From positions 7,750,001 through 7,814,000 of the forward strand of contig NC_060017.1 in assembly GCF_021134715.1 (NCBI RefSeq): 64,000 bases of DNA, written 5' to 3'. Position 1 is the first letter of the stretch, and each line of letters begins with the position of its first letter. The notes beneath the pieces were generated by a model. The model worked only from the letters and a program-made list of their open reading frames with translations, was not told the DNA's origin and made no database searches. Below, piece after piece: positions 7,241 to 53,439 of this stretch. A program made the position numbers and the translations under genes. The stretch is from Daphnia pulex. Lineage: Eukaryota > Arthropoda > Branchiopoda > Diplostraca > Daphniidae.

Positions 7241-8174
7241 CTAACACCGAAAGTTGTCACTGATTGCGCATTGGGGAATTGAGCCGGTCGTGGAGCAGAG
7301 AGGAACCGACGTGGACACGGTAAGTTCGGTGATGGTTGATCTTCTGGTCACCGACCAATAATTTTGCAAGAACTGGCGTTGCAAATTGAGGACGGGTCGA
7401 GAGAATCGCCTGTTCATGGGCGTGGCCATGGACTTGAATAAATCGTTTGGTTGGAAACCCGGCTCAATGTCTCGATTCGGATTGCGGTACATCAGAACGT
7501 ATTGCGGATCGGCAGCGCGAGCCTCTCGCTCTGAAAATGTTGGCAACTGGGTAGACTCGACTCTATATATACGCCCAATGCAAACGGACAACAAGTCTTT
7601 TAGTATATAATCCAACTGTTTGCAATTAAAAATTAAAAAAACTTTTACCGTTGAATGCGAGAGGGTAAAATAGCGAATTGATCGGCATAATCCTCGTCAA
7701 TCATAATTCCCTTTCCTCCATCTACTATCGCAAATCTGCAATGGATCAATACAAACACAAATGAAATATTATAGCCTATGATATAAAATGAAATAGACAC
7801 AATGTTATAGTCTGAATCAGATTGACTTACGGTGATTTTCGTGAGGGCGAGACTGCTGACGGTCTTCCAGGTCGGGCAGGACGTCTGGACGGCCGTTCCG
7901 GCCTCTCCACGACGGAAGTGCGAACAACGCAAGGAGTGTCGGTATATTTGGTGCAAACGAGGGTAGAAGTTGAAGTGGTCCATTCCATGATCGTCTGTCG
8001 GGTAGGTCTGACAGGAATGATCAACGACAAAGTCATCATCTGCTGTCGAAGGCCTCCCTCTTTCGGCTCAAAGTCGTCGGCCGTGTAGAAGTCGGACTCG
8101 TCCATTTCCTGCCGGTCTATGCCAGTCGCGGCACTCACCACGGCCAAGATAAGCAAAGAAAGTGTTAAACGCAT
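7241..8174 (-). CDS. Secreted two-repeat protein, paralog 1 (unknown family)
   Basis: Three coding exons (8174-7831, 7735-7649, 7562-7241), both introns in phase 2, give 250 aa; the length stays in frame. The start is the first ATG before a clear signal peptide (MRLTLSLLILAVVSAATG). The mature protein holds the same signature twice: about residues 43-75 (RQQMMTLS then RQTIMEWTTSTSTLVCTK) and about 206-233 (RQFLQNYWSVTRRSTITEL then a Cys followed by ST). Between them lie an Arg/Pro-rich stretch and a short acidic exon ending DQFAILPSRIQR. Two further paralogs follow upstream on the same strand with the same intron phases. I do not recognise the family; no catalytic motif is visible. It is probably exported; a structural or extracellular-matrix role is only a guess. 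Confidence 0.82.
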
Positions 8175-8288
8175 TTCGAAAGCACGCGACAGAAACTGAA
8201 TATAATGGGCAGCTTGGACAAGCAAGACTTGGTCAATTGGCTGATCTCTTGAACAACAGACTGCTCAAGTCCCAGCACTCAAAGTCCG

Positions 8289-8296
8289 TATTTATA
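8289..8296 (-). promoter_or_regulatory. TATA box of secreted paralog 1
   Basis: On the minus strand the bases read TATAAATA, about 115 bases before the ATG at 8174. That leaves room for a short 5' UTR. The paralogs at 10237 and 14619 have similar TATA-like boxes 65-105 bases before their ATGs. Confidence 0.55.
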
Positions 8297-8299
8297 AGA

Positions 8300-9292
8300 G
8301 AGCGCGCGGAGTGTGCTAACCATATTCAAATCGACGTTGAGGATCAAAAAGGAATAATCGGTAAACTGGTTTGCGCGCTCTTCTCCGAGTTCAACGTCTC
8401 CCATCGGCCTTTAATTAAAACAAACTCCCGAAATATATACGATCAAGAAAAGGTGACACGCTTTTCCGTAGTTCTCCTTATTCCATCTAGGGAGAAAAGA
8501 TATGGCAACGGAATTGAGTGGCCATTGTTGGAAGTTCAATATCAGTTGGACTGTCTGCTTGCTGACTTTTGCTGTGTCAACCGTGAAACTCGGTCACTGC
8601 AGCAGCGGTCGAGCCCAATCCAGTTAGATGGGAATTTTTGTTGGAAAGGTTGCCGTCATCCGTCAGTTGCGCGTACATTCCTATAAATTCGACCGTAGTG
8701 ATTGAATTCTTCGTATAACTAAAAATAGGACTGAACTGGCAGTCAACTGTAAACCAGTTATGTATATAGCATGACATTTACCTGCACAGTGCTTCTTTTT
8801 AAATAATGATCGAATTATTATCAACCAATTATTTGTGAAAAAACACAGCGCGGATGCAAGCGCACCGACACACCCAACCCGATATCCCAAAATAGGAAGA
8901 AGCCCCAATAAAAATAGAAAAGAAGAACGTTAACAGTCTAAATTTTTCTTGTACTTTATTCGGCAACTCTTTTTGACATCATCGTAATTATAAATGTTGG
9001 ATTTTGCAATGTTGGATCAAGATGGGAACAGCAGTGTAAAACACCACAATAAATAAGAATGGTTAAAAACGTCTGTATCGAATAGTAATCCGCAATTCAT
9101 ATTCGTGCGCACTCAGATGCTGTTGAAATGGTGACGAACGGGAACGATAAGAGAATAACTGCGCGCGTTTTAATTCAATTCCGTTTCCCGCATTAATTAA
9201 AATATTATTTTAGAGTGGATCGCTGAGAATTATTTAGAGCTTCGACTATTCGAATCCAATAAATACTGTATTAATTAAGTACATGCATTTTT
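8300..9292. other. Intergenic spacer between paralogs 1 and 2
   Basis: About 1 kb between the promoter of paralog 1 and the stop codon of paralog 2. The plus-strand frame around 8162-8686 mostly overlaps antisense of exon 1 and promoter and has no recognisable product. I see no further gene or RNA. Confidence 0.5.
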
Positions 9293-10237
9293 CTAATCCC
9301 AAACACATTGTCTTGGGGGTTTCTCAGGTGGGCATTGCGGGAGTCTCCCGAGGGTCGAACAAATGGGAGTCGATGTGGAGACGTCCATTTCCAGGATAGT
9401 CGTCCTCCTTGTCACCGTCATCAAACTTTGCAAGAACTGCTGCTGACGTTGGCCATTTCCGGATGGAATCCGCCTGTTGAAACTGTCCGAACGGAATCCA
9501 GACTCAATAATGTCTTCAGCCTGCTGCTGCTGGTTGCCATAGTATCTCGAAGCCACCACCAGCAATTGAGGGTCAGCAGCACGACCCTCTCGACTTGGGA
9601 ATTGAGTAGCCTCAACTCTGCAACAATATATAGAAAATTGTTATTTGATCGACCCACAAAGTTAACTTGATAAGAATGATAATACCCTTGCACAGCAGAA
9701 GGGAAAATGGGGAATTGATTCTCGTTATCATCTTCCAACAACATGTTGAATAAATCGTCAGTTTTCGCTGGTCCATAGCTGCGGAAATCGAAATCAAACA
9801 CGATTAAGTTCATTCTCCAACAAGCAATTCAATAATCGCAATCAAGACATAGCCTATATGTATATCGAATACTTTTGATTAGCCAGAGCGATTGGCGGTC
9901 GATTGAATCGCCACGGCCGTTGGGTTCTCCGTCGAACTGAGCACTGATTACTGACAGACTTGGTGCAAACGATGGTCGAAGTGGAAGTCAACGTTTCGAG
10001 GATGGTGAGCCGGGTCGGAAGGTTCACCGCCGGAAAGACGAACGACATGGTCAACATCTGCTGGCGATGCGCATCCGCGTTATTGTTGGACGATGGCTTG
10101 ATTTGCTCGGCGTAGTACGGGTAGTTTTTGTAAGGGAATAAACTGAACGCATCCGACGCCCGATCTTTGGCCGCAGCGGTCACGTACGCCGTCGTGACAA
10201 CAACAGCGATAGCCAGCAACGAAAATTTGCCACGCAT
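9293..10237 (-). CDS. Secreted two-repeat protein, paralog 2 (unknown family)
   Basis: Three exons (10237-9873, 9778-9686, 9617-9293), both introns phase 2, give 260 aa in frame. The start ATG begins a signal peptide (MRGKFSLLAIAVVVTTAYVT). The repeated signature is present twice: about residues 58-93 (RQQMLTMSF then RLTILETLTSTSTIVCTK) and near the C terminus (QQFLQSLMTVTRRTTILEM, then STSTPICSTLGRLPQC). Exon 2 is acidic and ends ENQFPIFPSAVQG, matching the equivalent exon of paralogs 1 and 3. Exon 3 opens with VEATQFPSREGRAADPQLL, closely like VESTQLPTFSEREARAADPQ of paralog 1. Function unknown; the same tandem array and probable promoter type suggest shared expression. Confidence 0.82.
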
Positions 10238-10299
10238 TTTGAAACGAGCGATGTAGCTTTTTGCAGGAGACTGTCGAGACAACCATCCCGAGATGTTTG

Positions 10300-10307
10300 T
10301 TTTTATA
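10300..10307 (-). promoter_or_regulatory. TATA box of secreted paralog 2
   Basis: The minus strand reads TATAAAAA about 65 bases before the ATG at 10237, a good distance for a core promoter with a short leader. Confidence 0.5.
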
Positions 10308-10399
10308 CAGCGACGGATGCGTTGGTATGCAGCAACCAGTTTGGGAGTATTGACATCCGGTAAATATCTCCGTGTTTCTAGCAAAATGCTTTTAGCTAT

Positions 10400-13342
10400 A
10401 TACATGCTTCAGTTTACCAACGTCCATCCAAGCATTTGGGATCGACAAGGTTGAGTTGCTTGATATTATTTGCTGTAGCTCGATTTCGGTCGCTTTGCTC
10501 AAGGCAGATTGACATGCCTTTCGTTTGTAAACAAGTTTTTCACATTTTTTTTAAATTTTATATATTTTTTTTGGGTGATTATCCGCAAACGAAAAGATAG
10601 CTTTCTAGTGCATGATTTTATGACTTTTATAGCTTCCTCACGTAGTCACGCTCTGTCCCTTCCTAGTACATATTATCTCCTTTTTAAATTTCGATGCTAA
10701 CGTCACGATATTAGCCTTTAATGCCATACAAAAGTTTAATTTCTTTCATGACCTTCCGTGACTTTATTTTAAATCGCACAAAGAGGCCAAATAGAGGACT
10801 TGTTACAATGTGTCATTGTATGATACACGTATGCAAGATACAAATGATCTTCGTGTAACTCCAGAAACTTTTATTTCCTCTTACCAGTGAACGTTAATTT
10901 ATTTTGGTAAGAGTTGATTGGACTCGCTGTGTGCTTAACAAAACGGTATCTATTATTACTCCTCTATCGTTGTAAATCTAGCCTTGCCAATATTTATATT
11001 TGTTTCGTATTAATACGGTTTCATTCGATTTTAATTAGTTTTATTTTATTTATTTTGGCTTTATTTTTTTGTTTATTTTATTTTGTAACTGAGTCATTTT
11101 TATTTTATCTTGGAATTCGCAATCTGGCAAATGCAAAACCGAGCCATTCCAGATTGCAGAATGCAGACAACAAGCAATTGCATCAACAAGTAGCCGAACG
11201 TCACATGAAACGTCTTTCTCAATTTTTGAGAGTGTGAAAAAACACTAGAAATCATTATCACATATAGATTATAGATCACATCAGATTTGTGCACTTCAAC
11301 AACGGACATTCTACTACTTTGTCAGGTATGTTTTGTCTTCATTTCGTAAACCTGAGTTGGAATTATTTTGTAGTGTAAAAAGCTGGCAAAGGCAGACACA
11401 GACATAGCTTTCTTTCTTGTCGGAGGCCAAACTGAGGTCACCATGACCGAATTCGAAGAAAACCTGATGAAAATGATGAAGGCATCATTCAGACATCTCC
11501 AAGTTTTCTTGTCCAACATCATGCATGTAAACAAGTCACTTGGTGGTTCTCGTTTGTGAACACACTCCAATGCATTAAAGAATAGGAATATTTTATTTAG
11601 TTTTTTATTAATTAAAAAACTAGATAAAACTGAATATTATATAGTTTATCATCTTGATTAAGGAAAAAACCCAATATTTATTTCATTTTATTACGTTTTT
11701 TCAAAAAAACCAAATTATTTCATTTCGTTTAATTTAGTTCTTGTCAAACTAAATTTGCAACTCTCCTCTTCTCTCTTTGCCAGTCGACGACCTTCACCTT
11801 TTTGAAGACTAGACAATATTTCAGCTTTAAACAACAAGTAACAAGCTTTTTGGTCCAGTTTTCTGTAAAAGGATTTCCTAGAAAATTGGGAGTAACAAAC
11901 TTGAACAGATTAAGTTACCTAATTTAATCTCTGTTTGCGGTTGTTCTGCTGCCCGTATATGTATAGTTATGTCACATGTTCTTTTCGTTACGGAATCCCA
12001 GTATTGCATATCAGAATAGATGAGCTTTCTTTGTTTCGCTTTGAAGTGTCAATTTACGTGCGATTTTTCCGCCAATTGGCATGCAATATTCAGTCGGTAC
12101 TTTACAGCGGCTTATTCAAATGTTGGATTCGTTTTTCTGTAGCGGTATCTTCAAAAACAAACCCCACCTAGCCTGTCTTCAAGGCCACTTTTATTACGCG
12201 GGTTGTCAATATAGTCAATTCCTTTCACATTGACAATTTGAACCTGCTGTACTATCGATTTCGTGAAAAACGATACATTCTCCATTGTTCAAGCGCTTTT
12301 TACAGTTATTTTCCCATTGCATAATATCTCACTTTTCATCGAAATGGATACCGTAGTATGATTAATGCGTTTTCCAAAATCCTAAAGCAGAATCTAAATC
12401 ACAGACCATTTTCTGGTTTCGCGGAAGCAACATTATGAAACAAACAGCTCGAAAATGTTTCCATGTTTGGTGAAATTTAGATTTTTTTTTTCAAATCAAC
12501 GTTTAAGCTTCGACTTAAAAAAGAGAAGAATCAAGTTTTAAAAAGAGTCGCATACAGGTGTGTTCGAAGGTTTTGACCAGCTATCGTGAAACCTGATTTT
12601 TCTTTAAAGATTCGTCTTACTTTTACTATACGACGATGGACATTAATGAATGCACATCGCATACCAAAAAAACAAACAAACCCATCCATGAGGAAAAGGA
12701 TAGGCATTACCTGGAATTACCTGTTTTGTTTCCTTTTTTGCTTGCCCTCCTTTTTCCGTGCGCTTATTTTATTAATATTACCTTTGGGCTTTGTCAGGGT
12801 TCGTGTTAGATGGTTTCAAAACGGGGAAGAATGTCAAGTTATACGTAGAGAGCCGCGCTTGTAAGAATTGAAGTCGGCGCAAGTCATTCGCAAAAGAACG
12901 CTTACAGTGTTTTTATGAAAAAACTTGCAAACAAATATTTCGAGTTCATTGCCTTTAAGATTGCGTCTCGAGATCTTGCAAGATGTGAAATAAAAAATTT
13001 ATAATAGACTAGAATAGAAATACCGCATCTTATACGGACAGTGTCTCCAGCATGTAAAAAAGGCCATGCATGCCACGTATTTCATTAGAATACCGATCAC
13101 GCATCATTTGTACCGTATAATGCAGTAACTATTTCCAATAAAAAGAATTCCGAGTATCTTCAGTCATGAGCTAAATATCTATTATACAAAACGCAATTTG
13201 ATTTCGTTTGAGGGATTACAATAAATTATAAACGAAATGTTGCCGTAAAATATGCGAGCATCGCATACGTTTGTGTTAGTGACGCATTTCAACGAGTAAA
13301 GCCTTTTTTTCTGTTCAACAGTGACGGAATTCTTCTTCTTCT
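10400..13342. other. Intergenic spacer, ~2.9 kb, with possible coding relic
   Basis: AT-rich sequence between paralogs 2 and 3. Only one part looks coding (see 11288-11560). The open frames near 10914-11237, 11935-12171 and 12586-12864 have skewed compositions and no recognisable motif. No RNA gene was recognised. Confidence 0.45.
11288..11560 (+). pseudogene. Possible exon pair or gene relic of unknown family
   Basis: A plus-strand block ending at a TGA near 11560 reads CKKLAKADTDIAFFLVGGQ and continues with EFEENLMKMMKASFRHLQVF. It is preceded by a splice-like 47-48 base interval (GTATGT to TTTTGTAG, about 11325-11373), which would join it to a short upstream frame. The composition is protein-like rather than random AT-rich sequence. 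No start codon or promoter was placed, and I do not recognise the family. It may be a gene relic, part of a DNA transposon, or chance. Confidence 0.25.
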
Positions 13343-14619
13343 TTATGTTTTTTCGCTTTTTTTCCCGCTTGGGCATTGTGGAATTCGGCCAGGCTCCGAA
13401 CAAGTTGGGGTCACGGTGAAAATGTCAATTTCAAATATCGTTGACTTCCTCGTAATCGTGAAAAACTGCTGCAGAAACTGACGCTGCTGGCCCCCATCAC
13501 CATATCGCTTGTTAGCTGCCATGTACGGTTTTTGATATCGTCGACTGAATGGCGCAATCACAGGATCATAAGAGCTGCTTAGGAATCCGGACTCGATGTC
13601 CTGAGGTTGGTTGCCGGAGTACACCACCAACAATTGAGGATCAGCTTCCGGATTAGCAACACGACCTTCCCGGGGTTTGGGCATATTTGTAGACTGAACT
13701 CTATACAAACAAAAAAAAACAAAATGAGTAACGATACTCTGTATGAAGATTCAGATTTACCTCTGGATGGCAGAGGGAGCAATAGCGGGGAATTGCTCAT
13801 CCTCATCGTTGGCTGCTTCAACCAAAATGTCGTTGACTTCTTCGTTGGCCAGAATTCTAAAACACATTTTTAATAAGAACAGATCGTGAATTAGAAAATC
13901 GAACGATGATATTTGAAAAAAAATTGATAACAAAAGGACTAAAAGCTTTCGAGTTTAAGTAAAAAAAACAAATATTTACTCTTGGATGGATGGGACGATT
14001 TCAGGTTCTTCTGGTTCCTCCGGTCTCTTTTTACTTTAAAAATGTTTTTTAAAACTTTAGTAAGCTGACAATAACTGGTAATTATATTCAAGAATTTTAC
14101 CTTGTAGAGGCAGAGGAATTGTGAACAGCCTCTTCTTCTCCGACTCTGTTATTATCCATAAAAGATAAGAAAAACGCTAATTTTAGGAATCTGGGCGATG
14201 GAATGAAAAGTGTCCATTTACGTTTCAACGGTTGACGTATTAGTAGCAGGTACTGGACGCGTTGGTCTCGTTGGCCTTGCTGGTCTTGCTGGACGTGAGG
14301 TAGACGACGGCCTTTGACGAACGCTAGAACACCTTTGGGCGACAGATTTGGTGCAAGTGATGGTGGATGTTGATGTAGTAGATTCCATGACTGTTTGTCG
14401 CGTTGGAATGAAATATGATTGCGATACGGTGGATACAACTGTCGTCGTTTGTGTCACAGTTTCCCTCGCCGGCAAGATTAACGACATGGTCATCATTTGT
14501 CGAAGCGATTCTAATTCGGTGCCGTAGTAATTTAAAAAATCGAACACTTTTGATGGTTGACCATTAGTGGAAGACGCTAACACCGCGACAGCCAACAACG
14601 AAAGCGCAATCAAACGCAT
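13343..14619 (-). CDS. Secreted two-repeat protein, paralog 3 (unknown family)
   Basis: Five exons (14619-14222, 14145-14101, 14024-13980, 13856-13761, 13700-13343), all introns phase 2, give 313 aa in frame. The signal peptide is MRLIALSLLAVAVLASSTNG. The N-terminal signature (LRQMMTMSLILPARETV, RQTVMESTTSTSTITCTK) is extended by an extra partial copy rich in Thr and Val. Then come an Arg/Pro stretch, two 45-base exons not found in paralogs 1 and 2 (acidic VGEEEAV and PEEPEEPEIVPS), an acidic exon ending FPAIAPSAIQR, and a last exon with RQFLQQFFTITRKSTIFEI and a final Cys-rich tail. The two extra exons are symmetric in phase, so their gain or skipping keeps frame. Function unknown. Confidence 0.82.
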
Positions 14620-14716
14620 TTTTGAACCACGAATAAAGTGTCACAGCTTGAGAGCAAATGGGAATATTGGTGATGCTCTTTGTCAAAAGACTGGGCAAAT
14701 TAGAGCATAGTGGTCC

Positions 14717-14725
14717 GTTTTTATG
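14717..14725 (-). promoter_or_regulatory. TATA-like box of secreted paralog 3
   Basis: The minus strand reads CATAAAAAC about 100 bases before the ATG at 14619. It is weaker than the boxes of paralogs 1 and 2. Confidence 0.35.
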
Positions 14726-43931: not shown

Positions 43932-46541
43932 TCAAATGCGGTCACCGCAATCAGTGACTTTCGAATACCGGCATCTTTGGTACTTGGTTTCATATAGAGA
44001 ACCTTTCTTGCATTGCCAAAGATGGGCTCGTTTAATAGCCGACTGGTTGTCACAGGTGTAGAAGAGACGGCACTGAGTAGGATGCGGCCAATTGCCATTG
44101 CCGGAGCAATGAAAATTTGTATCGATACCTAGGAGTCGGTCTTTTTCATCTTCGTCAGCTTTTAACTGTAAAGAAAAAGTATTTACTATTTGAAATAAAT
44201 ATGCTATACTTTGACAAAGGTAACAAATTACATAAAAACAACCAACAATGTTGAAAGGAAAATCGCAGGCTCCAATAACAGAATTGAAAACTGTATTTGG
44301 GGGACAATTCTGTCATCCGGGAAAGAAAATAGTTATAACAGATTGTGATAATTAGTAACAATAAGAAATTATACTTGTATAGTGTATACTCCATTGGTGC
44401 AATTATAAAACGAAGTGCAATTCCCGGGAATTCCAAAGTTACCATTTGGCATTGGGCAAATAAAACCTGGGGGGAAGGTCGTGGTTGGTTTACTGGTTGT
44501 TGTAGTGGTTTTGGTTTTATATTCGTCAGCTCTTAACTGTAAAGTAAAAGTTATTACGAATTGAAACAATGTACTATACTTTGACAAGGTAGCAAATTAC
44601 GTAAAAACATCCAGGAACGTTGAAAGGAAAATCGCAGGCTCCAACAACAGGATTGAAAGCTGTGCCAGAGGGACAATTCTGTCATCAAGGAAAGAAAATA
44701 GTTATTTCAGATTGAGAAATTTAATAACAATAACAATTATACTTGTATAGTGTATACTCCATTGGTGCAATTATAAAACGAAGTGCAATTCCCGGGAATT
44801 TCGAAGTTACCGTTTGGCATTGGGCAAATAAAACCTGGGGGGAGGGTCGTGGTTGGTTTAGTTGTTGTTGTAGTAGTTGTTGTTGTTGTAGTGGTTGTTG
44901 CAGTGGTCGTTGTTGTGGTCGGTGTAGTGGTTGGTGTAGTGGTTGGTGTAGTGGTTGGTGTAGTGGTCGGTGTAGTGGTCGGTGTAGTGGTCGGGGTAGT
45001 AGTTGGTGTAGTAGTTGGGGTAGTAGTTGGTGTAGTAGTTGGGGTAGTAGTTGGGGTAGTAGTTGGGGTAGTAGTTGGGGTAGTAGTTGGGGTAGTAGTT
45101 GGAGTAGTGGTCTTTGGCCCGGCTGATAAACCAAAAATAGAAGGTAATTTAACAATCGTCATACTGCTACAGGTAAAAAACATTAACAGGTAAACAACAT
45201 TACCACAGGTAAAAAACAGAGATAGCTATACTTTTTATTAATAGCATAAATACGATTTTATACTGTTGTTTACTTACGCGTGCATGTTTCTTCTATTGGC
45301 TTACAGGTAGACAAGTTTTGGTCAAATACGGAACCCGATGGACAATACTATAGCAATTGTATATGCGTAGTTAAAATGTTTAGTTGTTCAAATATTGTCC
45401 CCATTAATTATTTTACCATTGTAAAACTTTGGCCGCCAGCACAATAAAAATACAATCCGCTACAAGTGTCTGACAAATATAATAATGAATTAAGATCACT
45501 CACTCTATTAATCCGATTTGTTTTATTGTATTTACCAGGGTACGTGTAGTAGCCGTCTTCACCGCAGTCGAACGACGCATCTATCATATTTACAAAATAA
45601 ACAAATTAATAAGCCAATTTTGCGCATCACGTTTGAAGAAATATACTAAAACTTTTTGTCGACGGAAGTCTAAAGAAAAAAATTACTACCGGTATTGCAT
45701 GTAGCTTCACCGGAAGGTACGCATTCATAAGTCACAGGATCAAAGATGTAGTCGTTAGGGCACGTCTACATTAAGGAAACGGAGATGGTCAAAGAACATT
45801 TTTTAAATTGGAAAAATAATAAAGTAGTAAGACCAGTTTTTGCGGGTATCCCTTAGTGCATTCGTAATATTCACCGACGCAGTGTTGAGGAACAGGATAT
45901 TTTCCTTCTTCAGCGGGACATTCTGATAAGAAGAAAAAGAGAAAGAAAGAAGGAAAGAAAACATAACAGTCATTACGTTACTGATTTTCAGAAATGTTTA
46001 AGTCAACTAAGGACTTACCGAAACAAAGTGCGGGTTCGACGCAAGTGTGCATTTCTGGATCGAACAATTGTGGTTCTGGGCAGAGCTAATAAGAACAACA
46101 TAAATTTACAAAATACGTTACTTCTGCTTTTATGAAGATTGTTTTAGTCTTTTGTTCGTATACCTGGTAATTTATCATGTTTCCACCATAGCACAAGTAA
46201 AAATCATTAGTGCACTGGTTGTTCATAGTGTAATAGCCATCTGGTAGGTCGGAGGGGCAAACGAAATCAGGTGACTGTGTAATAGTAAAAAATAAATGTA
46301 AAATATTTAACTTTCCGCACTTTAAAAATAAATGCAATGGAAAAATAGTGCTGTAATTGACGACGCCAGAAAATACTTACCGGTGTTGGCGATTCCTTCA
46401 AAAAAGAACAAGAGTAGCCTGATCAAGAAGAAGAAATGAAAACATGATTAAAAACAACTATAAATGCGCAACATATTTGAGTATAACATTACCTTGAGTG
46501 ATTACAAGAATCAAGATAAATTGTATCCACCGCTCCATCAT
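43932..46541 (-). CDS. Peritrophin-like protein P8, six CBM14 domains
   Basis: Fourteen exons (46541-46493, 46418-46381, 46274-46164, 46085-46019, 45922-45834, 45765-45690, 45580-45536, 45469-45417, 45347-45278, 45122-44743, 44678-44601, 44536-44375, 44309-44232, 44165-43932) give 509 aa in frame. The leader is MMERWIQFILILVITQG. Domains 1-3 are ordinary CBM14 units. A Thr-Thr-Thr-Pro repeat of about 16 units then leads to domains 4 and 5, which are nearly identical (FICPMPNGNF both). A divergent sixth domain (FHCSGNGNWPHPTQC) ends the protein after ADEDEKDRLL. Exon 2 is 38 bases, as in P6 and P7. It is the largest member and the first gene of the array in the direction of transcription. Expected role: secreted chitin binding with a mucin-like linker. 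Confidence 0.87.
44166..44865 (-). repeat. Tandem duplication of two exons and introns in P8
   Basis: The segment 44166-44500 and the segment 44539-44865 are close copies with a period of about 371 bases. Each includes the end of a Thr linker, a CBM14 first half, an intron, the second half and the next intron. Introns match nearly as well as exons, so the duplication is recent compared with the rest of the cluster. Confidence 0.85.
44918..45112 (-). repeat. 12-base coding minisatellite (Thr-Thr-Thr-Pro, ~16 units)
   Basis: About sixteen 12-base units inside exon 10 of P8, followed by a further pure Thr run. The repeat keeps several frames open on both strands, which produces long antisense frames with no meaning. 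Confidence 0.9.
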
Positions 46542-47220: not shown

Positions 47221-50200
47221 TTAGGCAAAATCAGGACAATGATTTCTAGTGTGACCTGCATTCAGAAATTAACAGTTTGTAAACAATACGAAAAGGAATG
47301 TAAATATTAGCCTACCTTCTTGACCGCAGTTTCCGCATTTCCTCGCTCTTCTTTCGGTAGTGGATGACGGATCACTAGACTTCCCACGACCGCGTCCTCT
47401 TCCTCGCCCTCTTCCTCTAGAACCCGTGTCTTGATTCGATCCTCCTCGGGAGTCTTGATCAAATCCACTTCCGCTAGCGCCGGTGTCATCCATCCACTTG
47501 AAGAAATTGCACTGTGCCTCACGCGGTTTGGCGCAACAATAAAATTGACGCCCACAATTTGGTCCTGGTTTTTGGGTTGTTCTTGTCGTGGCCAATTCAC
47601 GACCCCCTCCGTCACAGTCACAGTAAGTCTCCGAATCATCGTTATCACGTCGCTCATTCCGGGCAGTCGGCTGACGGAAAAATGCTTCTCCTGCCCCACC
47701 ACGACCATTTTGAGCAGCTGGTGCCGGTACATTGGCAGCATCAGCCCATAGGAAAAAATCGCAGCCATCCTGTTGTTTTGCACATTTATAGAACTGCCGA
47801 CCCGTGTTGGGACCTTCCTTCCTAACCGTTAGGAGCAAAGCATCAGGTGCGTCCCTGCACTTGCATACAATCGCAGAGTCCCTAAGCAACAAAACAAAAG
47901 GTTTAGATTGTTTAAGATCCATTTCACTTTAGTAAATCATAAATACCCGTTGTTGTTATCAGATCTTGATGGCGGATGAGGCACAGGTTGACGGAAGTAC
48001 GGCTGTGAAGGGATATTCGGTTGGGTAGCTCCAGAGAACGCTGAAGGAATTGGCGGTCGAGCACTTCGAGCGTTATTGGGAGCCATTGGGCGAGGCTGGA
48101 CTTGAGGTCTAGGAAGAGTCGAAGCAGAGGAACGGGAGCTATTTGCAGAATACTGAGATCCGGAAGCGTAACCAGAAGAATTCCCAGAATCATTGGCAAC
48201 TCTAGTGTTACTCGGCTGAGTGTTGTTTTGGTTTCGGGGTTGTGTTGCCAACGGACGGATTCCTAGAAGTTCCATAAAGTTTGGGTCGCATCCACCAATA
48301 CAACCGCGATGAGTATCCGGGTAAAATGGAGCGTAAACTCCCGGGGTGAATTGGAACCGCAATAGGGGTGGATGAAAAGGACACTGGAGAAGAGATTGAC
48401 TTGTAAAAAACAGAGAAGCACGATAGTTGTTAAATAAAAGACGAAATACAGACCGCGTTACACTTTTCCGCATCAACTTCCACTTGCTGTACAGCAGCTG
48501 GCAGCCAGACGGCGGTTTTACATTCAGGAAAGCCCATACAAGAGAAAAAGAAACTGTTGTCCTTTTTCCGTCGCAGAGTCATGTCCAAGTTACAAGCAGG
48601 GCACTTTCGGTAAGGCAAATTTGCATCTGGTCCTCCCTCAGGAATCATCGGTGGTGCTTCCTGTCGTTCCTCATTAAAGAATGTCGAAAGAGCCTCGTCG
48701 ATTTTGATGACCTATTGTGGTTATTGTAATTATTTTAACTTGATTTGAAATGGCAACCATTCGTGAAAACAAGTTTACCTGTTCCATTGCTTGTACAAAC
48801 ACCCTTCTGTATCTTTCAATCTGCTCTCTCAAGACATCATTCGGATTCCTTTCTCCATCGCAAACTCTGCAAGATTAAATGTGCAATTAATACTAGGACG
48901 GGGTTAGGTTTTAATTTAATTTTTCCAACCTTTTAAGATCAGCCTCGAGTTCAGCTCTGAGATTTGGCTTTGAAAGCGCGATCCCCATGGCGTCATAACC
49001 CTGTACGAGTCCCATACCCAATGAACAAGGTAAGAAGCGTCCGTCGCCTTGTACGCCAGCGTACTGCCGCGATTTGACCGTCTCAATATGGTCAGCATGT
49101 GTGGCGTCAGTACCAATTCCATGTTTTTCCATCAATGAAATCAAATCAGCTTCACTTAATAGTTGAGGTGGACTAGTTTCTCCCTCATCCATGGTTATCG
49201 ATGTCGGCTATAAAAGGCAAACAACAATTAGTATTTGACCGGAATATCCTGGAAATGTTTAAGTTTTATACGATGAAGCGCTGGCCTTCATTGAGTTGGG
49301 GAAGACTACGATCACTCCAGCGCTCGTACGGATATACTTCCAAATAGTTTCTTGCTACTATTTGCAATCCACTGGCGACGAAGCCTTCTTCTTGAATTTC
49401 GATTTCGGCCACCGTTTCGTAACCCTGTAAGAACCATAAACTTAGCGGAACGTGGAAATAAAATAAATTCCTCAACATACCTGGGCATCCTTACTGACGC
49501 AAGCTAAAAAATGGCGAACGATAAACTCGTAAAGTTTGCGTTCATTCTCATTATTTAAATTTCCTGCATATTTTGTTGGATGAATGGGAGGATGGGCCTG
49601 ATCACTTTTCTTCCCCTGGCGAGGGTTCAGCCCTTCGTCCAAAACGCGTTGAGCGAATCCTCCCCAAGCAGGATCAACCGTCTAATGCAAAATATTTTAG
49701 CGTAACCAATATGATTATAATTCAAGAACACGAATAGTTAAGTTTGTCATGATATACCTGACACTGGACCAAAGGAGTCAGGTCCAATTCTTTGGGAAAG
49801 ATATTTGTTTCGGTACGTGGGTAACTGATGAATCCTTGAGTGTACAATTTCTCGGCAATCTTCATCGTTTCCTTGGCATTGATTCGCAGTTTCCTGGATG
49901 CTAGCTTTTCAAGTTCCTATGACATAAATCGTGATGTAAAATTATATGCGGAAAAATAGACCAGACAAAAAAATTTCACATACAACAGTGTCTAAAGGCA
50001 AAGGTCTCCATTTGCTTTTATTCTTTGTTTGAACTTTGATTATTTCAGCTTCAGGGTTCTCCTGGCATCTTTTATCAATATCATAGTAATATAAATTTAA
50101 TCAAAACTAATAACACTTGAATTTTAGTTGATAATGCTAGTTGATAATAATAACAAATACTTTTCAAGGAGTATTTGAACCACTGTTTGATCAAACAAAT

Positions 50201-51400
50201 GGTGTCTTTTCCAAAGGAATTCAACGCGCTCTTCCTCATTGAGCTCCCAGACAACTTTGAGTTTCCAAAAATTCTCTCTCACAAAATCCTGTATGGCTTT
50301 ATATCGCTCGACAATAAAGCCTAGAGTTGGGAACTGACACGAACCATAACTGATCATAGATTGGCCTACAAATTTTAAACATTATTATTGAAATGTTGAA
50401 TTTATTTGTCGTAGACTTGATACAGCCAACAAATCCACTTACCAAGTGAGCCTGGGAAGACTTTTTGAAGTCGTAGAGTTTGAAATCTTGTAAATGCAGC
50501 ACCAATTCTAAGATCCAACTCAATTCTAAGATCCACTGCATCACTGACATTTTTGTTAGGGGGGCCCAAATTTTGAAGTGCTCGAGCAATTGACTATAAA
50601 ATAAAATTAGACAAATGGAATTAGATTGTAAATTTCATTAAGATAGTTAGCCTTTTACTTGGTATGTTATTTCAGAGAACTTTGCTCTGAACACTTGAAT
50701 GCTAGGCTTGATTGCCTGACATACTGTGATTACTTCATAGCCAATATTTTCACCTTCTCTATCACAATCGGTCCAAATGATCAGGTATTTGCTCTTTTTG
50801 GTTTCTTCCTCCAAAGTTCTTTTGATGTCTTGATAGTCATCGGCAACAAATTTATGAATTGGAGCTTCAAACAAAGTAACAGGATTAACCCCATGCCACT
50901 TTTTATAATTTCCAACAAAGTCAGAAGATAGAAGATGACCAGTTACTGAAGTAACTGCCATTTTGACATTTTGGTTGAAAAGATTATGTTCAAACTCATA
51001 GATTTTGTTGAATTTGCTTCGGCCTTCTCTACGATTTGCACGACCTAATGTAATGAAGAACATATAATCCTATTACATTTGGCAGCTTAAGCATTGTGAC
51101 TGTGTGAAGTATTACCGCGAGAAAGAAGTTCAGCAATATTTTTGGCAGCATCGTTTTTCTCTGCTACATTAAGCACCTACAGATAAACATCGAATTTGAG
51201 ACGAACGTTTCGTTCAATACCCATGAGGAAATAGTAACATCATTCGTACAAGGATGATACCAATTCTTGCGACATGTTACCTGGACCATTTTACAAGACT
51301 CTGCTGATACGGCAGTTGTTTTACAACATCTAGTAAACTCTAAACGATTCAAAGAAACGTGTTTAATCCCCGACAATTTGAAATGAGAAAATAATAACAT
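47221..51400 (-). CDS. Top3a: DNA topoisomerase III alpha
   Basis: Fifteen exons (51400-51281, 51176-51116, 51044-50659, 50593-50443, 50365-50161, 50068-49984, 49916-49758, 49681-49481, 49424-49272, 49207-48930, 48866-48779, 48711-48454, 48383-47947, 47881-47316, 47255-47221) give 1060 aa in frame. This type IA enzyme cuts and reseals single strands and, with BLM-type helicase and RMI1, dissolves double Holliday junctions. The Toprim domain shows [18 protein letters not shown] and [10 protein letters not shown]; the catalytic Tyr is in [11 protein letters not shown] (about Y368). The C terminus has a four-Cys zinc finger (KCPACNLDM...), two GRF-type zinc fingers, an Arg-Gly tract, and a CCHC knuckle ([16 protein letters not shown]). 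The first 38 residues are basic and may be a mitochondrial signal; a second Met (MVQ) would give a nuclear form. Confidence 0.95.
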
Positions 51401-51829
51401 GACTTCCCATCCCTTTTGTTAGATCACCCGCCAATATGGAAGCCTCTTCTCTCCGCCAACCTAATGCGTCGCTTAAAAAATTTAAGCTAATTTAAGTTTT
51501 TTAAAAATTAAAATTATAAGACAAAAACTACTTGTTTAGGCAAGAGTGGATCATTTATTTTAAGAGAAAAGAATTGTACAAAGCACAAAAACATTAAAAT
51601 AATTTGAAATAAAATTTAAAAAACAATACTATAGAATTATAGATTAATAGATGTGGAAAATCCAGTGGTGAACTGACAAAAGTTGTAAAGTTGCGTCTCT
51701 AAAATGACTTAAAAGGCAAGCTTATTTGCGTTGCAATATTCTAATAATAAAATGTTGATAATTTGTTTGGCAAATAATGGCAAGTACGTATGCTGGTAAA
51801 CGACTATAGAAAATATTGATTTAGTTTTA
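51401..51829. other. Spacer between topoisomerase and carbohydrate kinase genes
   Basis: About 430 bases, AT-rich in the middle. It holds the topoisomerase promoter and the 3' end of the kinase gene. No repeats or open frames of note. Confidence 0.5.
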
Positions 51830-53293
51830 TCAATCCGTGGGCGTTCGTGGAGTATTTAAAGCGGCCAGAGCTGCTCCGTAAGATGCATCTCCTTCTTGCA
51901 CGGTTTTAAATGGAATGTTTTTATATTGAACGGCAACTTGCTGTTGAAGAGGTTGGTTTCGACTAAGGGCAGATCCGGTTCCAACCAACTGGGTAACTCC
52001 GTACTGTTCCAGCAGAGTGGTGGACATCATGCTGTTTGGTGAAAACATAAAAATCAAACCGTCAAGAAAACTAGCAATAAAGAAGATAATTTATTACTTG
52101 TGCAAGTTGGTGATGAGTCCCTCAAATAATGCTTTCGCCACATTGCCGAGACTAATATTTCCCGAATTTATGTTGGATACTTCGGCGGCGGGCAACCTGG
52201 ATAGATGACGTTCGCCAAAAAGGGTCGGAATGATGGTCATGGCTTGTTCAGTTGAATTTGATTGCTTCACCAGGGTCAGCATTTTATCCCAAATCAAGCT
52301 CTGCGGAACCCCGAAGCCCAAATCCTGCATCCAGGACTGCAGCATCCGAACGAAAGAAGCCATGACGTTGCCCCCGTTCAACGAAGCAGCGACGGCCAGA
52401 TAGCGGTTGTCAAAATACGGGAAATATTCGATAGATGATTGCGTGTCCGGCAGAGTGAAGTCGGCCGGCATGCGAAAAGAAAGTTGAGCAGATGTCGAGA
52501 TGTTTAACACGGCCGTGCATGCAATCTCGTTAGCAAGGGTGGATAACACGGAGCACTGCATGTCCCCCAAGGCGGTAAGCACTTGCGTTCCACGCGGGAT
52601 GCCGCACCAGGTTTTCGACAAGGTACCCGCCACGGATCCGCTATCCATTACTTTCGGGAGAAGATGGATGGGGAAGTCGACAGTTTTCAAGATGTCTAGA
52701 TTCCACGTCTTGTCTTGAGTGTTGAAGTAACCCCAACTGGCAGCATTTTGAATGGACATGACAGGGCAGTCGAGGTCACAAAGCATGGAGACAAGAAAGT
52801 CTTGGATGGTCCCTGCACAGCTGTAAAGCGAAAGCTCTTCTGGCTCATTTCTCAGCTTCCATAAAAGTGTGGCACATCCATATCCTGATGCAATTCTCAA
52901 ATGGGAGTCTGGTTTGGGAACTTCGCTGAGGAATTCCAAGGAGCACCTAGAATCTTGCCAAGTGTACAGTGAGCTAAACGGACCCTTACCCAATTCAAAG
53001 CGATCACTGCTTGATGTGGTCCAAGCGGTTTCCTTATTCCAAAGCACAACACCATGCATTTGTCCACAGACGCCGATCTTTGTAACATTCTTGAGCAAAT
53101 CTCTAGGAATCCGACCGATGCAATTATGAACGGCCGATATGATTTTCGAAACATCTTGTTCGGCTCCTTCGCCGGCCTGTGTGTCCTTGCTTTGCTTGGC
53201 TACCACTTTGCGTGAATGGATATCTACAACGCTGACTTTAACAGAAGTAGTTCCTAAATCCAGACCGAGAACGAGATTGGCTGCTGTGGCCAT
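51830..53293 (-). CDS. Shpk: Sedoheptulokinase-like carbohydrate kinase (FGGY family)
   Basis: Two exons (53293-52098 and 52031-51830; intron phase 2) give 465 aa, close to the size of vertebrate sedoheptulokinase. The FGGY-family ATP-binding start is clear: LVLGLDLGTTSVKVSVVD. Other family marks are IGVCGQMHGVVLWNK, LYTWQDSRC, QNAASWGYFNT, TALGDMQCSVLS and, in exon 2, LVGTGSALSRNQ for the C-terminal nucleotide site. The QMHG and WQDSR motifs favour sedoheptulokinase over xylulokinase or glycerol kinase. It should phosphorylate sedoheptulose to sedoheptulose 7-phosphate, feeding the non-oxidative pentose phosphate pathway in the cytosol. The start is the first Met before the ATP-binding motif. 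Confidence 0.92.
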
Positions 53294-53439
53294 GTTTTTC
53301 TTCTGCTTCGTACGTGACTCTGCTTACCGGTCAATAGTTGGGAGGTTGTTTATTTGTCAATTTCTCGTTCTGTACTGCTCGAGACAGACAGACGAAAGGT
53401 CTTGTGTTTGTTTTGGTTTTTCAAAGCTGTCTGCAAGTT

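What the first reader, a model, noticed from the sequence alone, without database searches (positions are those of the whole stretch)
7241..14619. Tandem family of secreted proteins with a two-fold internal repeat and no known relatives
Three head-to-tail minus-strand genes share a leader peptide, phase-2 introns, TATA-like promoters and a signature found twice per protein: RQ(M/F)(M/L)..., then R-x-(S/T)-(T/I)-(I/V)-x-E-x(3)-ST-S/T-x(2)-C-(T/S). I cannot link it to any named domain. The conserved single Cys in each repeat could make one bond between repeats or between molecules. All three reading frames join exactly over 11 exons, so these are real genes and not shadows.
Basis: partly seen in the sequence, partly recalled or inferred. 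Interest (0 to 1): 0.75.

Follow-up and report, generated by a model that had tools for sequence, protein, structure and literature searches.

The report
Water-flea family of two-part secreted proteins
Three neighbouring genes, almost certainly from the water flea Daphnia pulex, belong to a large, unnamed family of secreted proteins built from two similar units joined by a linker with conserved protein-cutting sites, probably to make slime or surface coatings; this was predicted from sequence only.

Summary
The three genes are real: 11 exons splice with GT-AG, phase-2 introns into secreted proteins of 250, 260 and 316 aa. One key detail is wrong: each repeat has two cysteines, not one (C-x7-C in unit 1, C-x8-C in unit 2). 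"No known relatives" holds for Pfam, NCBIfam and PDB, not for the same genome: 23 immediate-family loci (22 intact) on one chromosome and about 47 loci with the same plan on five. Shared plan: signal peptide, T-rich strand with Cys hairpin (unit 1), usually a polybasic site, acidic linker, RxxR, second T-rich Cys hairpin (unit 2). A linker RxxR occurs in 31 of 35 models against 5.4 expected by shuffling. Close relatives show dN/dS 0.14-0.37. Core-family promoters pair a TATA-like box with a CAGT initiator in 21 of 22 genes. Three paralogues carry mucin-like inserts. Best reading: furin-type processing gives two disulphide-closed chains for an extracellular matrix or mucus. Cleavage, bonding and role are inferred.

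The parts
7241..8174 (-). Gene A, 250 aa: exons 8174-7831, 7735-7649, 7562-7241
   Evidence: GT-AG, phase 2, open to stop
9293..10237 (-). Gene B, 260 aa: exons 10237-9873, 9778-9686, 9617-9293
13343..14619 (-). Gene C, 316 aa: exons 14619-14222, 14145-14101, 14033-13980, 13856-13761, 13700-13343
   Evidence: the 45 and 54 nt exons rest on splice signals and open frame only
7929..7955 (-). Gene A unit-1 Cys hairpin, C-x7-C (residues 74-82)
9941..9967 (-). Gene B unit-1 Cys hairpin, C-x7-C (residues 91-99)
14329..14355 (-). Gene C unit-1 Cys hairpin, C-x7-C (residues 89-97)
7517..7528 (-). Gene A REAR, furin-type RxxR site just before unit 2
   Evidence: (P1 Arg invariant in 17 of 17)
9581..9592 (-). 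Gene B REGR, furin-type RxxR site
13661..13672 (-). Gene C REGR, furin-type RxxR site
7268..7297 (-). Gene A unit-2 Cys hairpin, C-x8-C (residues 233-242)
9332..9361 (-). Gene B unit-2 Cys hairpin, C-x8-C (residues 239-248)
13373..13402 (-). Gene C unit-2 Cys hairpin, C-x8-C (residues 298-307)
8291..8296 (-). Gene A TATAAA, 34 bases before a CAGTC initiator (A at 8262)
10302..10307 (-). Gene B TATAAA, 35 bases before a CAGTC initiator (A at 10272)
14720..14725 (-). Gene C CATAAA, 33 bases before a CAGTC initiator (A at 14692)

Best explanation
A Daphnia family of secreted two-unit precursors. After signal-peptide removal a furin-type convertase cuts at RxxR just before unit 2 and, in most relatives outside the window clade and its nearest kin, also at a polybasic site after unit 1. 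This frees an acidic spacer and leaves two similar chains. Each chain has a variable, often Tyr/Pro-rich stretch, an Arg-aromatic motif, a T/S-rich strand and a Cys loop (mostly 7-9 residues) closed by its own disulphide. The chains then build an extracellular matrix, coating or mucus. In A and C the polybasic site is replaced by an RP-rich linker (B keeps RRR and RPWR), so the window genes probably give an N-chain with a basic tail plus a C-chain. Shown here: gene structures, duplication, cysteine pairs, conservation of the sites, purifying selection among close relatives, shared core promoter. Inferred: actual cleavage, disulphide pairing, O-glycosylation, structural role.
For: Clean gene models. 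In 17 terminal exons the P1 Arg is invariant, with one Phe and the two unit-2 Cys the only other invariant columns; the P4 Arg is nearly invariant. Linker RxxR in 31 of 35 against 5.4 by shuffling; RxxR within 14 residues after hairpin 1 in 28 of 35. Four cysteines in 20 of 22 core proteins, unit-2 spacing 8 in 19 of 22 and unit-1 spacing 7 in 16 of 22. Unit 1 resembles unit 2. Mucin-like S/T inserts between hairpin 1 and the polybasic site in N2 and N3, and after hairpin 1 in N, which has no polybasic site there. dN/dS 0.14-0.37 in 35 of 36 close pairs. Eight exon-level matches to the convertase P domain in this genome.
Against: No expression, proteomic or structural data. AlphaFold2 models of the window exons are uninformative (mean pLDDT 47.9 and 48.6; a low-confidence helix in one, a helix and two strands at low confidence in the other). 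Gene A's linker is so Arg-rich that RxxR is expected by chance (0.79 of shuffles; C 0.36, B 0.30), so the evidence rests on family-wide conservation. In the script four of 35 linkers lack RxxR: K (KITRK), W2, X1 and N, whose REARAADPQ fell outside the slice but is visible. In V2-V4 and W1 the counted site lies elsewhere, so RxxR just before unit 2 is in about 28 of 35. A and C lack a polybasic run after hairpin 1, as do D, E, F and N. None of the 36 dN/dS pairs is a window gene. T-rich runs inflate repeat scores: reversed controls also score high, and D, E, O, F, S, U and X1 have z below 2. The sequences are paralogues, so counts are not independent.
Confidence: 0.5

Rival explanations
1. The precursors are signalling peptides: convertase cuts release small disulphide-loop hormones or the acidic spacer peptides.
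For: Basic and RxxR sites in a fixed order. The 7.26-7.29 Mb cluster repeats GLFY-type peptides between RRRR, RDRR and GR sites.
Against: About 47 loci, low-complexity T-rich chains and mucin inserts are unusual for hormones (established knowledge); no receptor or expression data were available.
Confidence: 0.15
2. Immune or pathogen-facing mucins and effectors diversified in tandem arrays.
For: Tandem expansion and mucin-like members, secretion.
Against: 35 of 36 pairs above 55% identity have dN/dS 0.14-0.37 and one has saturated dS (whole-gene averages, so single fast sites are not excluded). No immune domain in the proteins scanned.
Confidence: 0.15
3. Secreted structural or mucin proteins that are not cut; RxxR and the polybasic site are conserved for another reason such as charge pairing with the acidic spacer.
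For: The acidic spacer lies between basic sites; the window clade has mostly lost the polybasic site but kept the rest.
Against: P1 Arg invariant and P4 Arg nearly so in 17 terminal exons while the two residues between vary (E-A, E-G, V-V, N-E, M-E, K-D, K-G).
Confidence: 0.2

Closest known systems
Insect vitelline membrane (eggshell) proteins, e.g. Drosophila sV23/Vm26Ab
   Same: Small secreted matrix proteins, cross-linked by disulphides and then by bonds that include dityrosine (passages of PMC10697589); sV23 has an N-terminal prodomain (reference title only). C-x7-C and C-x8-C spacings recall the VM domain (recalled, from no call).
   Different: The VM domain is one hydrophobic C-terminal stretch (passage of PMC9455775) with three cysteines (recalled). 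In the window proteins two Cys pairs lie about 140-200 residues apart; no VM hit in Pfam among the proteins scanned; expression unknown.
New glue family PF21827 and arthropod mucins
   Same: Short secreted T-rich proteins; weak hit of relative V5 exon 1 (E 2e-6, 27.9 bits).
   Different: Below the curated cut-off of 31 bits, covers leader plus T-rich part only, and the window proteins do not hit it.
Two-chain hormone precursors (proinsulin type, recalled)
   Same: Two chains around a spacer flanked by basic sites.
   Different: No Pfam insulin hit; low-complexity chains; each unit has its own Cys pair.
Orphan and tandem genes of D. pulex
   Same: Genes without homologues and tandem duplicates are described in general terms (passages of PMC3584848 and PMC1940262).
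   Different: The passages seen do not describe this family.

Membership tests
Insect vitelline membrane (VM domain) proteins | Match to the VM domain profile (that Pfam holds one is recalled) | tested here: not met
   no such hit at E<=1: three full window proteins, 17 terminal-exon peptides, 10 relatives or exon pieces
Insect vitelline membrane (VM domain) proteins | Three cysteines C-x7-C-x8-C in one stretch (recalled) | tested here: not met
   two separate pairs, e.g. A 74/82 and 233/242
Insect vitelline membrane (VM domain) proteins | Follicle-cell/eggshell expression | not testable with these tools
   no expression data
New glue family PF21827 | Score over the curated cut-off | tested here: not met
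   27.9 against 31 bits for V5 exon 1; no hit for A, B, C
Mucins (mucin-type O-glycosylated proteins) | Long S/T-rich repeat region | tested here: inconclusive
   present in 3 of 22 core proteins (N, N2, N3; S+T 0.32-0.50), no long domain in A, B, C (S+T 0.17-0.22)
Furin-type convertase substrates | R-x-x-R before a non-proline residue in a protein with a secretory leader | tested here: met
   31 of 35 linkers against 5.4 expected; A, B and C have REAR, REGR, REGR; chance alone could explain A's
Furin-type convertase substrates | Cleavage observed | not testable with these tools
   needs mass spectrometry

The most novel reading that the evidence does not exclude
A previously unnamed modular superfamily in which one precursor yields two paralogous T-rich, Cys-hairpin chains that co-assemble into a Daphnia-specific mucus, fibre or coating. 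Cutting would act as the assembly switch and the acidic spacer as an intramolecular chaperone, with dozens of paralogues tuning the material.
Probability: 0.25. Interest if true: 0.7.

Novelty: new variant of a known kind. Interest (0 to 1): 0.5.

Why it matters
Over a third of D. [quoted passage not shown] This gives about 47 such loci one architecture, testable cleavage sites and predicted disulphides, and gives the core family a shared core promoter. One mass-spectrometry and RNA-localisation study could then assign them to a tissue and a material.

Tried and rejected
AlphaFold2 on window-only three-row alignments gave mean pLDDT 47.9 and 48.6; not interpreted and not fold-searched. Weak Pfam and PDB hits, all below curated cut-offs or E>0.05, were taken as chance or composition; profile search of PDB and NCBIfam scan gave none. 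GTDB scan with one relative (V10): 51 pattern matches, none confirmed. Viral contigs were not scanned. Upstream 6- and 7-mer enrichment over 22 core promoters gave no motif that I trust (best z 5.1, 6 of 22). Whole-gene positive selection rejected for the close pairs. Literature: eight searches, of which I saw the capped listings. 'Find' passages were read of PMC3584848, PMC9455775, PMC10697589, PMC13322756, PMC12102780, PMC12926508 and PMC1940262, no whole paper. Nothing seen describes this family, but subscription papers and supplements were not searched, and no animal protein database was available.
Full report
Source. D. pulex is given as 133.2 Mb (passage of PMC12926508), so the species is inferred from size and gene style, not named by any tool. 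Of 77 long window ORFs ten were scanned against Pfam: hits include an FGGY sugar kinase, Toprim and GRF zinc-finger domains and a chitin-binding CBM_14 domain.

Observation. Genes A, B and C splice exactly: 3, 3 and 5 exons, all 8 introns GT-AG and phase 2, giving 250, 260 and 316 aa with hydrophobic leaders. C's 45 and 54 nt exons have no counterpart in A or B. B and C are 43% and 44% identical to A. Each half carries two cysteines, not one: C-x7-C in unit 1 and C-x8-C in unit 2.

Relatives. tblastn of A against the genome gave 21 matches, all in three clusters on C1. Q, J, P and F gave 39, 39, 50 and 14 matches at E<=10, the weakest being chance-level. Models: A, B, C by hand, 13 by a script with phase 2 imposed, F by hand, 18 with phase left free (22 starts tried, 4 gave none), and N2 and N3 with phase 2 imposed: 37 in all. 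Of the 18 free models 16 chose phase 2; V6 chose phase 0 and W1 phase 1, and both may be incomplete. The immediate family has 23 loci on C1: 3 in the window, 13 at 5.39-5.415 Mb, 5 at 6.904-6.916 Mb and singles at 2.893 and 7.528 Mb. One of them, T, stops before its last cysteines. Adding the 24 other N-terminal exons picked out by a motif filter gives about 47 loci with this plan on C1, C7, C8, C9 and C10. Ten of the 47 (including T) lack a full model. For the C10 loci the tblastn support is weak (E 8e-4 to 0.25), so their kinship rests mainly on the shared plan. The window trio is one clade (95/93) nearest D, E and F of the 5.4 Mb cluster, though few inner branches are firm (3 of 19 starred).

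Architecture. Leader; variable, often Tyr-rich stretch; Arg-aromatic motif (RLF, RFF; RQMM/RQFL in the window); T/S-rich strand; Cys pair; usually a polybasic site; acidic spacer; intron; in the core family VExT...R-x-x-R-A-A-D-P-Q or a variant; second stretch; Arg-aromatic; T/S-rich strand; Cys pair; end. In 17 terminal exons the invariant columns are the P1 Arg, one Phe and the two cysteines. Linker RxxR not followed by Pro: 31 of 35 against 5.4 expected by composition shuffles. The slice missed N, whose REARAADPQ is visible; in V2-V4 and W1 the counted site is a different one; N2 and N3 were not in that test. RxxR within 14 residues after hairpin 1: 28 of 35. A polybasic run there is absent from A, C, D, E, F and N, and present in 29 of 35 (B has RRR). 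Cysteine number is four in 20 of 22 core proteins; the unit-2 spacing is 8 in 19 of 22 and the unit-1 spacing is 7 in 16 of 22.

Internal repeat. hhalign of a unit-1 profile (8 relatives, no window gene) and a unit-2 profile (17 proteins): probability 82%, E 1e-5 over 38 columns, without a shuffled control. Smith-Waterman within each of 35 proteins: z>2 in 28, forward over reversed in 33. T-rich composition helps these scores, and in A and B the script took the extra terminal Cys as the end of unit 2. I treat the repeat as real but its exact length as unsure.

Selection and promoter. Of 36 pairs over 55% identity, 35 have dN/dS 0.14-0.37 and one has saturated dS; many dS values exceed 1, so the ratios are rough, and no window gene is among them. 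The window trio gives dN 0.45-0.53 and dS 1.17-2.61. A TATA-like box 28-37 bases before CAGT occurs upstream of 22 of 35 genes against 0.7 expected from mononucleotide shuffles. In the core family it is 19 of 20 (R lacks it), plus N2 and N3; among the other 15 genes it is only 3. The paralogues share ancestry, so these are not independent.

Mechanism. The invariant Arg of an RxxR in a secretory protein, with changing residues between, is what a furin-type convertase needs (established knowledge); the genome has 8 exon-level P-domain matches. Two similar chains each closed by a Cys loop would result. Long S/T repeats after hairpin 1 in N, N2 and N3 point to a mucin-like, O-glycosylated material. 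I therefore favour a matrix, coating or mucus role, by analogy with cross-linked insect eggshell proteins (passages of PMC10697589), without membership: no VM-domain hit. Tissue, cleavage and bonding are untested.

Novelty. No curated family passed its cut-off and no paper seen describes it. The genes are probably annotated as uncharacterised proteins in public sets (inference). The kind, a tandem secreted family without known relatives, is known; the two-unit, convertase-site architecture is the new part.

Noticed in passing
L031 (C1:6,906,501-6,912,000, minus strand): Two paralogues (N2, N3) have long S/T repeat inserts between hairpin 1 and the RRRR site, i.e. a mucin-like domain placed at the end of chain 1.
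   Followed up: yes
L032-L034 (C1:7.258-7.287 Mb): A sister cluster of at least 11 genes repeats GLFY-type acidic peptides between basic sites, e.g. GRRRRGLFYDE...GRDRRGLFYNDEE.
   Followed up: partly
L023 (C1:5,389,918-5,390,187, minus): Gene T's terminal exon stops before the last cysteines: probable truncated copy. Left as it is.
   Followed up: no
L029 (C1:6,919,564-6,925,857, minus): A 2,098-codon open frame that looks like a retroelement polyprotein near the 6.9 Mb cluster; seen in passing only.
   Followed up: no
window 43935-45225: Chitin-binding CBM_14 domain ORF (E 2.1e-12) and a weak one below cut-off (0.0025), in a stretch with GC skew 0.238 at 44001-46000.
   Followed up: no
window 47272-53323: GRF zinc-finger and Toprim ORFs (a topoisomerase-3-like gene, name recalled) and an FGGY carbohydrate kinase ORF.
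   Followed up: no
L036, L039, L042 (C10): A more distant branch with RRKR after hairpin 1; L039 and L042 end in CLPTGWIIC and CLPAGYFVC: same plan, different hairpin.
   Followed up: partly
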